A stretch of DNA of 52,634 nt from positions 1 to 52,634 of the forward strand of contig CAMEFI010000022.1 in assembly GCA_945915475.1 (NCBI GenBank), written 5' to 3'. The notes below the pieces were generated by a model. It was not told where the DNA came from. It saw only the letters and a list, made by a program, of their open reading frames with translations, and did not search any database. Positions 19,251-27,735 of this stretch are shown piece after piece. Both the position numbers and the translations under genes were made by a program. The DNA comes from an uncultured Clostridium sp. Lineage in GTDB: Bacteria > Bacillota > Clostridia > Lachnospirales > Lachnospiraceae. How positions within the stretch are numbered: the stretch's first letter is position 1; each line of letters opens with the position of its first letter.

Positions 19251-19305
19251 CGAAAAAGGCAGATTGCCGGTTAGATGTCATCTGTCACCAACCCACGCAA
19301 AAAGA

Positions 19306-19323
19306 GAGTGACATTTGTCACTC
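19306..19323 (-). terminator. Terminator after the ATPase remnant
   Basis: GAGTGACA-TT-TGTCACTC perfect hairpin followed on the reverse strand by TCTTTTTG, just after the stop codon of the remnant at 19332. Confidence 0.75.
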
Positions 19324-19331
19324 CCTTATCT

Positions 19332-19551
19332 TCACACAAACAAATCATCCATTGTTACTACTGACTGGATATTTCCCGCATAAGAATTGCTTACAAGACC
19401 ATACGTCGTTATCAATGTAGGATAGATTGCATACTTTGTTCCAGTCACCAGCACTAAATCATTCATTTTGCGCCGGATACTTCTGTCCACCTTCTCTGTT
19501 GCCGTGTACTCTGAGCCAGAGTACTTCATTTCACACAAATTGATTACTTAA
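19332..19551 (-). pseudogene. C-terminal remnant of an AAA ATPase with PD-(D/E)XK/DUF234-type tail
   Basis: The frame V-I-N-L-C-E-M-K-Y-S-G-S-E-Y begins directly after a stop codon, has no start or ribosome binding site, and ends T-M-D-D-L-F-V-stop. The C-E-x-K-Y-S element and the Y-P-T-L-I-T-T-Y-G-L end are familiar from the C-terminus of Bacteroidetes/Clostridia AAA ATPases that carry a nuclease-like tail. Only about 70 residues of an expected 400 or more remain, so the gene is broken. A terminator still follows. Confidence 0.65.
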
Positions 19552-19605
19552 TGTATCGATTTTTGCAAAATTAAGTGGAGTTTAATCCATCAATTACAAC
19601 TTCTG

Positions 19606-19887
19606 CTACTCTTCCTCCAACTTGATCGACAACTTCATTCCCATAGCCGCTGCCACCTTAACCATCATTTCTAATGTTGGATTATACTTTCCGCTTTCAA
19701 AGCGTGTGATATTTGTCCTTGGAACACCCACTTTTCTGGCAAGTTCCTCCTGTGTCATCTTCTTACTCTTACGATATTTTACAAATTGCTCTATTACCTC
19801 TTCCTTGGCACGGTTCTGCTCATACTCAATTAATATCTTCTCTCCATTATTATCATAAATGTAGTCCATTATGATTCTTGAATCCAT
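19606..19887 (-). CDS. XRE-family HTH protein (HigA-like antitoxin or regulator)
   Basis: 93 aa from ATG at 19887 (GAGGGG precedes it by about 8 nt). The C-terminal half is a clear HTH: K-K-M-T-Q-E-E-L-A-R-K-V-G-V-P-R-T-N-I-T-R-F-E. The N-terminal half (E-K-I-L-I-E-Y-E-Q-N-R-A-K-E-E-V) is an extension typical of HigA2-type antitoxins. No intact toxin of HigB type adjoins; the gene lies 54 nt after the broken ToxN-like gene. It may be an orphan antitoxin left from another locus. Confidence 0.75.
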   Translation of the reverse strand: MDSRIIMDYIYDNNGEKILIEYEQNRAKEEVIEQFVKYRKSKKMTQEELARKVGVPRTNITRFESGKYNPTLEMMVKVAAAMGMKLSIKLEEE

Positions 19888-19940
19888 TTTATCTACCCCT
19901 CTGTTTGAATATAATATCATTAAAGCTTTTCCTTAGGAAA

Positions 19941-20478
19941 TTACGCTTTTATTATTGAAGATTCATTATATGTATTGCACGCTGACTCTAATTCTATAAA
20001 ATTAAGACAATCTTTTCTTCTCTTAAAATACTCTCCCGATTTATATTTGTCATACAAAACATTTGCTTTGTTGACTATAACATCTTTATTATCATTGCAC
20101 CAATCAAGTTCTTTCTGTAAAGTTATTTTTCTCTTTTGTGTCTGTTCACTATCGTGTTTTCTAATTCTTGTATCAACTTTTGAAAGTTGTTGTATCCCAA
20201 CCGGTATCATTCTGCTGAAATTGATTGCAGCAATGAGTTCCCCATCTACAATAATTCGAGAAAAGTCTATCTTGTCCGACATATTCTGATGTATATCCTT
20301 GACCGACGAAAGCGGAATGCAGTATTTGCAATTGTCACAGGTTACTATTATTCCAAGATATGGACGACTCTGCTTTCCAACTTGCGGACTGACGCTATAA
20401 ACTCTTTTATCTATAATTTTGCAAATTGCGAATATACTTCATATCTATCCAATATAAATATAATTTCTCATTTGTCAT
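19941..20478 (-). pseudogene. ToxN/CptN/AbiQ-like type III toxin (endoRNase), broken by a one-base insertion
   Basis: ATG at 20478 (GAGGAG upstream) reads M-T-N-E-K-L-Y-L-Y-W-I-D-M-K-Y-I-R-N-L-Q-N-Y and then hits TAA. Omitting one A at 20412 restores N-Y-D-K-R-V-Y-S-V-S-P-Q-V-G-K and joins the frame to the ORF ending at 19941, giving about 178 aa. Y-I-R-x-L near the start, R-P-Y-L-G-I-I-V, K-Y-C-I-P-L-S-S, F-S-R-M-I-P-V and the C-terminal N-K-A-N-x-L-Y are the pattern of ToxN/AbiQ-family RNases, which cut mRNA and process their own repeat RNA antitoxin. A promoter, two RNA repeats and a hairpin lie upstream exactly as in type III loci. The frameshift could be a sequencing error. Confidence 0.8.
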
Positions 20479-20499
20479 AAATCTCTCCTCATAAGTCAA

Positions 20500-20596
20500 A
20501 AAGGCTGTGTACATACACAGCCTTTGTCATAGTCCACCATATAGGCGGCTCTACTCTGTTTAATTGTCCACTTCCATCGGCAGGACTCTCCTCTTG
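20500..20596 (-). ncRNA. Type III antitoxin RNA: two ~37-nt repeats plus terminator
   Basis: Reverse-strand RNA expected from about 20596. Repeat 1 begins AGAGGAGAGTCC at 20594 and repeat 2 begins AGAGTAGAGCC at 20557, a period of 37 nt, sharing GAG-(C)-GCC, GTGGAC-A/T-AT and A-rich ends. A 12-bp perfect stem (20500-20511 against 20514-20525) with TTTTTG follows and lies between antitoxin and toxin, the usual attenuating terminator of type III systems. The hairpin C-C-G-C-C / G-G-T-G-G covaries with the second copy at 21001-21058. Confidence 0.7.
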
Positions 20597-20602
20597 GCTA
20601 TA

Positions 20603-20630
20603 ATTATATCAAATCATATGATGCTGTCAA
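20603..20630 (-). promoter_or_regulatory. Promoter of the type III locus
   Basis: Perfect consensus boxes on the reverse strand: TTGACA (20630-20625), 16 nt, TATAAT (20608-20603). Such a strong promoter fits the high antitoxin RNA level type III systems need. Confidence 0.75.
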
Positions 20631-20675
20631 CACAAATTTTGAAAACAATAATGTAATTATGAGTAAAACATCTGT

Positions 20676-20844
20676 TTAATTATGCCCCGTTCGCTCTGCT
20701 AACTGATTTTTAAATAAACTTTTGAGAAAGTCTTGCCTCAACCATCGCACGTATAACATCCAACTCTGGCTGAATTGCCTCATATTCTTTTTTTATCTCT
20801 TCATCTTGTAATTGTTCCTCTAAAAAATCATCATACTCTATCAT
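20676..20844 (-). pseudogene. HigA-like antitoxin, frameshifted
   Basis: ATG at 20844 after AAAGGA reads M-I-E-Y-D-D-F-L-E-E-Q-L ... V-E-A-R-L-S-Q-K-F-I and stops at 20710 (44 aa). The HTH then continues in another frame as K-N-Q-L-A-E-R-T-G-H-N before a second stop (20676). The D-F-L-E-E-Q-L-x-D-x-E-x-K-K-E-Y-E start and A-E-R-T-G are typical of XRE antitoxins partnered with HigB/RelE toxins. A deletion within the HTH has destroyed it. Confidence 0.65.
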
Positions 20845-20921
20845 TTTTTTAATCCTTTCCCAACATTCCTTCTATACTGCTTTACCTTCGTTATCTCCGC
20901 TTTGGATGTTTTCTGTGTTTT
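20841..20921 (-). pseudogene. HigB/RelE-like toxin, C-terminal remnant
   Basis: The frame K-T-Q-K-T-S-K-A-E-I-T-K-V-K-Q-Y ending K-K-stop, with the TGA overlapping the antitoxin ATG (ATGA), matches the end of HigB/RelE mRNA-interferases (F-x-K-K-T-Q-K-T-P-x-x-E-I). It is cut by TAA at its left end; only 26 residues remain. Together with the antitoxin piece this is a decayed HigBA pair. Confidence 0.55.
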
Positions 20922-20930
20922 TTAATAAGC

Positions 20931-20974
20931 ATAAGTGATACACTTATAGTACCATTTATGATACCATAAGTCAA
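20931..20974 (-). promoter_or_regulatory. Promoter and operator of the decayed HigBA pair
   Basis: Reverse-strand TTGACT (20974-20969), 17 nt, TACTAT (20951-20946), then a 17-bp palindrome ATAAGTG-ATA-CACTTAT (20931-20947) at the expected transcript start. This is a classic autoregulated toxin-antitoxin promoter that has outlived its genes. Confidence 0.6.
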
Positions 20975-21000
20975 CTATTATCTGTTTTTTCTATAACTAC

Positions 21001-21058
21001 AAAAAGGCTGTGCATGCACACAGCCCTTGTCATAGCTCACCATATTGGTGACTCTACT
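21001..21058 (-). ncRNA. Orphan second copy of the type III antitoxin repeat with terminator
   Basis: Reverse strand AGTAGAGTCACC...GGTGAGCTATGACAAGG followed by a GGCTGTGTGCATGCACAGCC-type hairpin and TTTTTG. About 80% identical to repeat 2 plus terminator at 20500-20555, with compensating changes in both stems. Only one repeat unit is present and no toxin gene follows it; instead the HigBA remnant lies downstream. Confidence 0.6.
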
Positions 21059-21170
21059 TTATTTTATAATTTTTTAATAGGAAACTCATGTACACGAAAT
21101 GGCAACTTGCGTTGTGTGCTATTGTTTAAAAGACAATTTGTGATAGACTATTTCAAAGGAGGTGCCTGAC

Positions 21171-21536
21171 TTGAAAATAACAGTAGATATTAATGAAAAA
21201 TTAGATGATACCGAAATTACCATTCATTGTAAACAAATAACACTAAACATCGAAAATATAATTGCAACGTTGCAAATGATGAATCAGCAGATGGTTGCTA
21301 CATCCATCAATGTTCCTGTAATGATGGTACTTTCATTTTTGCCTATGCTTTCCATGTTTAACGATACAATCAAATCTTTTTCAAAATACATATTTTCTGA
21401 GCAGTTATATCTTCTTGTAAACAACTTAGAAAACATAAAAATTTCTGCAGAGACAGGGATAATAATGGCTTGTAATATTCTTGCAATATCATTTTTATTT
21501 TGGTTAGCATACAAAAAAGTATTCTGCAATAAATAA
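21171..21536 (+). CDS. Small membrane protein with a LytTR-like N-terminal segment
   Basis: About 121 aa. TTG at 21171 is preferred because AAAGGAGG lies 8 nt before it; GTG at 21162 overlaps that site. Residues 1-40 (M-K-I-T-V-D-I-N-E-K ... E-I-T-I-H-C-K) resemble the linker at the start of LytTR regulators, but no DNA-binding domain follows. Two hydrophobic helices follow instead (V-M-M-V-L-S-F-L-P-M-L and I-L-A-I-S-F-L-F-W-L-A-Y). Either a small membrane protein or a fusion remnant. Function unknown. Confidence 0.5.
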   Translation: MKITVDINEKLDDTEITIHCKQITLNIENIIATLQMMNQQMVATSINVPVMMVLSFLPMLSMFNDTIKSFSKYIFSEQLYLLVNNLENIKISAETGIIMACNILAISFLFWLAYKKVFCNK

Positions 21537-21545
21537 AATCATATA

Positions 21546-21671
21546 TTAATCAAATTTATACACCATAATAAATTCTTCTCCGCTCTCACATACGATTTCA
21601 AACCCAAGCTGCTTATACATTCTTACTGCATAATTCGCTTTTTGCACTGCCAATGAAATCGTATAATTCAT
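21546..21671 (-). pseudogene. GNAT acetyltransferase, C-terminal remnant
   Basis: 41 codons from ATG at 21671: I-S-L-A-V-Q-K-A-N-Y-A-V-R-M-Y-K-Q-L-G-F-E-I ending V-Y-K-F-D-stop. The N-x-x-A-x-x-M-Y-x-x-L-G-F-E motif is the last part of the GNAT fold. The acetyl-CoA-binding part is missing, so this is a fragment. Confidence 0.65.
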
Positions 21672-21767
21672 TCTCTTTATTCCCTCTTATATATCGTTCA
21701 ACCTATGTATGATATCCTGCTGTATACTCTCTCAGGAAAACCATTCTGCATTTGCTCTTATCGCAAA

Positions 21768-22179: not shown

Positions 22180-22682
22180 TTACTTCTCCCGTCTTTTACT
22201 TAAAACCACCAGCCAAAATACTACCGTCCATACCAAGCCCCAAAGGAATACATACAATACTGCCGATTTTACATAGGAAATCTCCTGAACCATGACCATA
22301 GAATAATTCTCAGATACTCCCACATTTTTCGCCATAAACTTTCCAAATCTCCATTTTTTGCAGAAAACAAAACTGCCGTATCCACCTTAATATTCGTACA
22401 AACCAAATCTCCTTTGATTCCCCAGTCAAAATCCACAAAGTTATCATCCAGCAGCGTTCTAAGCTTTAACACTGCTGATATCTTCTCCGGCTTATCCATT
22501 GTTTTTACATACTCTTCAGGATAAAGAAGCGACTCTGCCTTCTGGACATAATTGGTAAGAATGCCAATCTGATCATACATCACTTCTTTCACAAACAACG
22601 TAGCAATCCCATTCATTACCAGGGCTATCAATACCATTCCAGCAAACCATATGATAATATTCTTAAAAATCTTCCCCTTCAT
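22180..22682 (-). pseudogene. Two-helix membrane protein of the ABC-2 cluster, frameshifted
   Basis: ATG at 22682 follows GGGAGG. The frame reads a helix (I-I-I-W-F-A-G-M-V-L-I-A-L-V-M-N-G) and an extracytoplasmic domain to S-A-K-N-G-D and then runs into a short false tail ending at 22269. In another frame the expected end continues: G-K-F-M-A-K-N-V-G-V ... a second helix (V-L-Y-V-F-L-W-G-L-V-W-T-V-V-F) and K-R-R-E-K-stop at 22180. One missing T in a T-run near 22335 would explain it. The intact product would be about 167 aa with an N- and a C-terminal helix. Real mutation and sequencing error both fit. Confidence 0.65.
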
Positions 22683-27503: not shown

Positions 27504-27517
27504 ATCCTTCTTCTATT

Positions 27518-27703
27518 CGTAGCACTCCACCTGATTCCCACTTACCGGAATTCTCTCTCGGTGACAGACATACAGTTCTTAACTGCACATCCAGACAGAA
27601 CACCTATAAGGAGATGTTCCTCTTCGGCACGAGTCCCTTTCACAATTCTTCCTCCATCCTTATCTGTCCAAACTGCTACTGATGACACATGCGCCTCTAC
27701 ACA
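27518..27703 (-). ncRNA. Lysine riboswitch (L box)
   Basis: The reverse strand carries the L-box landmarks in order: GTAGAGGCGC, ATCAGTAG, GTGAAAGGG, GTGCCGAAG, an arm AGGAACA...TGTTCT, then CTGTCA and GGTGGAG...CTACG. P1 pairs GTAG (near 27700) with CTAC (near 27520). Length of about 186 nt is normal. It controls dapA and, on the same transcript, the SDR gene. Confidence 0.85.
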
Positions 27704-27735
27704 TCGACGTAACATCTATTCATATGACTAAAACA

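What the first reader, a model, noticed from the sequence alone, without database searches (positions are those of the whole stretch)
19941..20630. Type III toxin-antitoxin locus with a one-base break in the toxin
Promoter with perfect consensus boxes, two 37-nt antitoxin repeats, an attenuating terminator and a ToxN/CptN-like RNase gene are all in the right order. The toxin frame is broken by a single extra A near 20412. If real, the locus is an antitoxin-only relic; if an error, it is a complete, functional phage-defence type RNase system.
Basis: partly seen in the sequence, partly recalled or inferred. Interest (0 to 1): 0.8.

Follow-up and report, generated by a model that had tools for sequence, protein, structure and literature searches.

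The report
Broken ToxN gene, single-unit RNA antitoxin
A bacterial toxin gene is broken by a one-base frame shift while the promoter and the small RNA that would neutralise the toxin look whole, and this RNA belongs to a group that has one antitoxin unit plus a hairpin instead of the usual row of repeats.

Summary
The locus is real and lies on the minus strand. The long toxin piece matches ToxN_toxin (PF13958, 1.8e-33); a short N-terminal piece matches an intact relative (78% over residues 3-20). The frame shifts by one base between residues 20 and 22, so as sequenced the toxin is dead. The promoter (12 of 12) and a terminator stem are there. The two 37-nt repeats are not: there is one ToxI-like unit, then a covarying hairpin, then the terminator. 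The same architecture was aligned in 26 loci. On a toxin tree the single-unit label needs one change against multi-repeat loci, with moderate support (77/74). A model of the leader gave 46 strong leaders in sampled genomes, the window's own included: 18 with an intact toxin within 1.4 kb, 17 broken, 11 without. A second, decayed leader lies at 20986-21093. Best reading: a single-unit ToxIN variant whose toxin is broken here. Real break or sequencing error cannot be decided without reads; the many broken relatives favour real. The break is ordinary; the single-unit architecture and frequent toxin-less leaders are the interesting part.

The parts
20603..20630 (-). sigma-70 promoter, TTGACA-16 nt-TATAAT with TG before the -10 box
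   Evidence: 12 of 12 consensus matches
20556..20594 (-). single ToxI-like antitoxin unit, predicted H-type pseudoknot
   Evidence: model R1, 64.6 bits over 20483-20594 (the window is one of the 26 rows the model was built from); unit shared by the 26 rows of A1; core pattern occurs once in the window, 0 in 100 shuffles
20530..20553 (-). conserved hairpin between antitoxin unit and terminator
   Evidence: 6 of 9 pairs change on both sides in 26 leaders and in 47; folded
20496..20525 (-). terminator-like stem and T run between antitoxin and toxin
   Evidence: 11-pair stem; helix 4, 8 of 10 pairs change on both sides; not listed by the pattern scan
20407..20478 (-). toxin gene, N-terminal piece (23 codons, then a stop)
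   Evidence: 78% identical to L002 residues 3-20
19941..20438 (-). toxin gene, C-terminal piece (165 residues stop to stop; first ATG/GTG/TTG at 20282)
   Evidence: PF13958 1.8e-33; PADLOC AbiQ 1.4e-22; 71% to L002 residues 22-170; start
20986..21093 (-). second, decayed copy of the leader: hairpin and terminator kept, antitoxin unit degenerate, no toxin after it
   Evidence: 81% over 68 nt to the first copy (blast E 8e-12); model R1 24.9 bits, which in the whole genome is only a little above background (next match 23.0 bits); fold z -4.4
20713..20871 (-). short relic ORF between the two leaders, HTH-antitoxin-like by eye only
   Evidence: no Pfam match and no NCBIfam match
19609..19920 (-). 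XRE/HTH_3 gene just downstream of the toxin
   Evidence: PF01381 6.9e-16

Best explanation
This is a ToxIN-like type III toxin-antitoxin locus of a single-unit subtype, in the antitoxin-only state. A strong promoter drives a short RNA holding one ToxI-type pseudoknot, a hairpin and a terminator. In intact relatives a little read-through would make the ToxN RNase, which would be held inactive by the single processed unit. Here the toxin frame is shifted near codon 21, so only a 23-residue peptide can be made, and the catalytic part has no start codon of its own. The antitoxin RNA is probably still made but has no ToxN to bind in this genome. Shown: anatomy, homology, frame break, conservation and covariation of the leader, and that no other ToxN was found in the genome (97.9% complete). 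Inferred: transcription, pseudoknot fold, processing, loss of toxicity.
For: PF13958 1.8e-33 over profile 17-159; both toxin pieces align to the intact relative L002; perfect promoter; leader match 64.6 bits; hairpin and terminator covary; one ToxN match in the genome; 28 of 46 strong leaders, the window included, lack an intact toxin, 12 of 14 in the genus; antitoxin-like debris nearby.
Against: The C-terminal piece is otherwise clean: 149 aligned codons without a stop, differences from L002 biased to third positions (38/28/82), as expected of a very recent break or of a sequencing error. The pseudoknot helices hardly covary: one compensatory cell, and about half of the cells of pair 9-31 do not pair. 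One covariation measure, further pair types, is not above shuffles (27 against 30.7; 39 against 39.5). Some 'broken' relatives are mild or unsure (L072, L080). No expression data.
Confidence: 0.76

Rival explanations
1. The frame break is a sequencing or assembly error and the locus is a complete single-unit ToxIN system.
For: Only one break; the rest of the gene is clean and looks selected; promoter and leader look intact; intact relatives exist (18 of 46 leaders, and L002).
Against: No long homopolymer at the site. Of ten other window ORFs searched, seven matched Pfam families and none of these was split between neighbouring frames; the rest of the window was not tested so. Broken or missing toxins are the rule in this genus (12 of 14 leaders, window included), but those genomes are drafts too, so part of that count could be error.
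Confidence: 0.19
2. The shift is bypassed by programmed frameshifting, so the toxin is made at a low level.
For: A low toxin dose is desirable in a toxin-antitoxin pair (inference only).
Against: The 19 intact toxins (18 leaders and L002) have no such shift, and no broken relative that aligns over residues 20-22 breaks there; I saw no recognised slippery site on reading the sequence (not a computed test).
Confidence: 0.03
3. One reading: two tandem 37-nt antitoxin repeats.
For: Gapped similarity of the unit and the following element in this one locus, p about 0.014, z 4.0.
Against: Ungapped identity at chance level; weak in the nearest intact relative L002 (z 0.9) and over 47 leaders (mean z 0.6, 5 of 47 above 2), while unit against unit gives 9.5; the second element forms a covarying hairpin.
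Confidence: 0.02

Closest known systems
ToxIN of Pectobacterium atrosepticum, Bacillus thuringiensis and E. coli; AbiQ/antiQ of Lactococcus lactis
   Same: toxin family PF13958/AbiQ; solved-structure hits 4ato, 2xd0, 7d8o; order promoter, antitoxin RNA, terminator, toxin; the unit resembles the start of the P. atrosepticum ToxI repeat (by eye, against a string recalled and counted once in PMC5772629)
   Different: one unit instead of 2.8-5.5 repeats (PMC5086642, passages); an extra conserved hairpin; toxin broken here
CptIN (Eubacterium rectale)
   Same: type III logic; found in gut Clostridia
   Different: no CptN among the solved-structure hits up to E 1; CptI is a 45-nt unit derived from two repeats (PMC4627078, passages)
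TenpIN
   Same: weak hit to NF047358 (22.9 bits)
   Different: far under that family's cut-off of 90 bits
Orphan antitoxins of protein-based TA systems and anti-addiction
   Same: antitoxin without its toxin; the terms occur in six papers (listing and abstract starts only)
   Different: here the antitoxin is an RNA of type III

Membership tests
ToxIN (type III TA) | ToxN/AbiQ-family toxin gene | tested here: met
   PF13958 116.4 bits, cut-off 25, on the C-terminal piece
ToxIN (type III TA) | toxin reading frame intact | tested here: not met
   one-base shift between residues 20 and 22
ToxIN (type III TA) | antitoxin as a tandem array of repeats | tested here: not met
   one unit; the window locus is therefore filed as a variant, not as a standard member
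ToxIN (type III TA) | antitoxin unit folds as an H-type pseudoknot | tested here: inconclusive
   the two helices pair in 87% and 84% of cells, but with one compensatory change only
ToxIN (type III TA) | intrinsic terminator between antitoxin and toxin | tested here: met
   stem and T run, conserved and covarying; not listed by the simple scan
ToxIN (type III TA) | toxin cleaves the antitoxin RNA and is held inactive by it | not testable with these tools
   needs biochemistry
CptIN | toxin closest to CptN | tested here: not met
   three solved-structure hits up to E 1, all ToxN
TenpIN | toxin over the NCBIfam cut-off of NF047358 | tested here: not met
   22.9 of 90 bits

The most novel reading that the evidence does not exclude
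A distinct branch of type III systems works with a single ToxI unit followed by a dedicated hairpin instead of a repeat array. Its antitoxin RNAs often stay on the chromosome after the toxin is lost, where they could disarm ToxN toxins brought in by plasmids, prophages or rival strains: an RNA anti-addiction device.
Probability: 0.2. Interest if true: 0.7.

Novelty: new variant of a known kind. Interest (0 to 1): 0.45.

Why it matters
The established criteria require a tandem array before calling a type III locus (PMC5086642, section on new bioinformatic analysis, read). All 45 gut loci tabulated in PMC6315513 have 1.9 to 3.4 repeats (table seen in passages). A single-unit branch would be missed by that rule. 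It would also make testable whether repeats are needed to control ToxN: antiQ with 0.8 repeat was inviable and at least 1.8 were needed, ToxI of P. atrosepticum needed 2.5, while a single CptI repeat neutralised CptN (PMC5086642 and PMC4627078, passages). The toxin-less leaders make RNA anti-addiction testable.

Tried and rejected
Rfam gave no match to a type III antitoxin family in the window (gathering scores; region 19300-21700 up to E 5) or in ten relatives (up to E 1). The toxin piece found no relative in IMG/VR, ten distant plasmid records (below 60% identity) and two distant phage records; the leader DNA found no phage record. An IMG/VR scan for the unit core gave 32 stretches, not more than I would roughly expect by chance (own estimate, collection size assumed), and none was convincing with the leader model (best 14.7 bits, E 0.12).

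Idea that toxin-less leaders are kept by selection: the core differs from the consensus of the intact loci by 0.42 positions (19 intact), 0.65 (17 broken) and 1.18 (11 absent) on average, p 0.14; promoter score 10.6 against 10.1 and 10.0, p 0.08. This neither shows retention nor excludes slow decay, and the consensus came from the intact loci themselves. The hairpin and terminator columns printed were mis-registered and are not used; one search replaces them. In one search four genomes' strong hits were overwritten by weaker ones; one search replaces it. One search stopped on an error after printing part of its rows; one search replaces it.

Another toxin behind the toxin-less leaders: on reading the ORFs of 18 such loci (output cut, one locus seen in part) I saw no common replacement gene. 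The paper search was not specific, because 'ToxIN' is read as 'toxin'. A search at order level (11 of 392 genomes at E up to 1e-6) gave four further leaders (G478, G443, G718, G709; one, G443, in another family); they were not classified and are not in any count. The organism was not identified. No structure was predicted.

Full report
Anatomy. The locus reads on the minus strand: promoter 20630-20603 (12 of 12), leader 20594-20483, toxin start at 20478, toxin end at 19941. The toxin lies in two frames. The N-terminal piece has 23 codons. The C-terminal piece has 165 residues stop to stop and matches PF13958 at 1.8e-33, PADLOC AbiQ at 1.4e-22 and the solved ToxN structures 4ato, 2xd0 and 7d8o (E 1.3e-6, 3.8e-4 and 4.3e-4). 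Against an intact relative (L002, an Eubacteriales MAG) the pieces align as residues 3-20 (78%) and 22-170 (71%), so the break lies between residues 20 and 22. The ToxN active site of P. atrosepticum is Tyr29, Lys33, Thr52, Ser53, Lys55 (PMC5086642, passage). Read off the 2xd0 alignment these fall on Gly, Arg, Ser, Ser and Lys of the C-terminal piece: Tyr29 is not kept; Arg for Lys33 also occurs in two E. coli clusters (PMC8860590, passage). All five lie before the piece's first start codon (20282), so a restart would give no active enzyme. A search of the window's own genome (97.9% complete) found no other ToxN.

The antitoxin. They agree at 17 of 37 positions, which the best of 25 offsets reaches in 21% of shuffles; a gapped alignment does better (p about 0.014), and the window is the highest of 47 leaders in that respect (z 4.0; mean 0.6; unit against unit 9.5). 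In 43 leaders tested for self-similarity (L025 was too short and left out), none of the 26 single-unit loci exceeded the best of 40 shuffles, while 11 of the other 17 did by at least two matches. What follows the single unit is a hairpin. In 26 aligned leaders it changes on both sides in 6 of 9 pairs; the whole structure scores 0.305 for covariation against 0.164 in shuffles and at most 0.098 when slid. With 47 leaders fitted to the model it is 0.334 against 0.176 and at most 0.112 (this alignment leans to the structure). Against it: the number of further pair types is not above shuffles in either count. The pseudoknot helices pair in 84-87% of cells but hardly vary, so they are plausible rather than proven.

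A branch, not a one-off. On a tree of 46 toxin rows, the label single unit (28 rows) against multi-repeat (12 rows) needs one change, support 77/74, in 75% of bootstrap trees; 6 rows were unlabelled, and the program warned of long branches among the multi-repeat and unlabelled rows. Labels rest and on reading the leaders: two of the 28 (L063, L064) rest on their model matches, and two multi-repeat rows (L015, L017) were labelled by eye because they did not pass the self-match threshold. One published table of 45 gut type III loci has 1.9-3.4 repeats (PMC6315513, passages), and the standard criteria demand a tandem array (PMC5086642). My searches for a single-repeat description listed none, but one search listed 12 of 18 papers, I saw passages only, and the 2012 classification paper is not held.

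Toxin loss is common. The leader model R1, built from 26 loci that had been found through their toxins (a bias against orphans), matched 16 of 26 genomes of the genus and 59 of 397 of the family, at E up to 0.001 and with stricter filters in the second. I classified the 46 leaders of 57 bits or more: 14 from the genus search and 32 more from the family search; L002 was left out. The window's own is among them. Within 1.4 kb, 18 have an intact toxin, 17 a broken one and 11 none. Among 22 leaders from genomes at least 95% complete and at most 3% contaminated the counts are 10, 7 and 5; in the genus 2, 9 and 3. Caveats: one 'broken' case (L072) stops only a few residues early, another (L080) rests on a weak match, one 'absent' case (L095) has only 563 bases downstream, weaker leaders were not classified, and drafts contain errors. 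Toxin-less leaders keep nearly the same core and promoter as intact ones, with a non-significant trend to decay.

The neighbourhood. A second leader copy at 20986-21093 keeps hairpin and terminator but not the antitoxin unit. Its model score is little above background in the whole genome (24.9 bits, next match 23.0); the 81% repeat is the stronger evidence. Between the copies the hairpin core differs by compensated changes (CCGCC/GGTGG against TCACC/GGTGA, folds), which fits RNA-structure constraint after the two parted, or two separate arrivals. Next to it is a short relic ORF. Downstream of the toxin is an XRE gene whose two best genus relatives (83%, in G005 and G004) lie on the same contigs as, and within about 2.5 kb of, toxin-less ToxI leaders. 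In G005 it follows a PBECR4 nuclease gene (PF18813), which was not found in the G004 stretch or at three other relatives. The left flank, up to about 19270, is shared with another genome of the genus, G001; a gene on the right (22272-22682) has no match in the 25 other genus genomes searched. This looks like a variable spot with antitoxin debris.

Judgement. The finding itself, a toxin gene broken by one base, is ordinary for this group. What deserves a second look is the single-unit architecture and how often the antitoxin stands alone.

Noticed in passing
window 19609-19920 (-): XRE gene whose closest genus relatives lie near toxin-less ToxI leaders in two other genomes; in one of them it follows a PBECR4 nuclease gene, so the window gene may be an orphan antitoxin of another toxin-antitoxin pair.
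   Followed up: partly
window 20924-20960: 37-nt stretch with a palindrome-like core, 89% identical to a stretch just upstream of the toxin-less ToxI leader in G005; perhaps an operator.
   Followed up: no
window 19332-19538 (-): Short ORF that looks by eye like the C-terminal end of an AAA-ATPase-type protein; no Pfam or NCBIfam match.
   Followed up: partly
window 27512-27707 (-): Lysine riboswitch, 96.9 bits.
   Followed up: no
L110 1501-1599: Leader with promoter, unit and hairpin but, by reading, no terminator stem, and no toxin within 1.4 kb.
   Followed up: no
L011, the stretch upstream of about position 1450: ToxN locus in the same genus with what looks like one unit followed directly by a terminator, without the hairpin.
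   Followed up: no
G443 (L163): A leader match of 53.8 bits in a genome of another family of the same order: the single-unit leader is not confined to the window's family.
   Followed up: no
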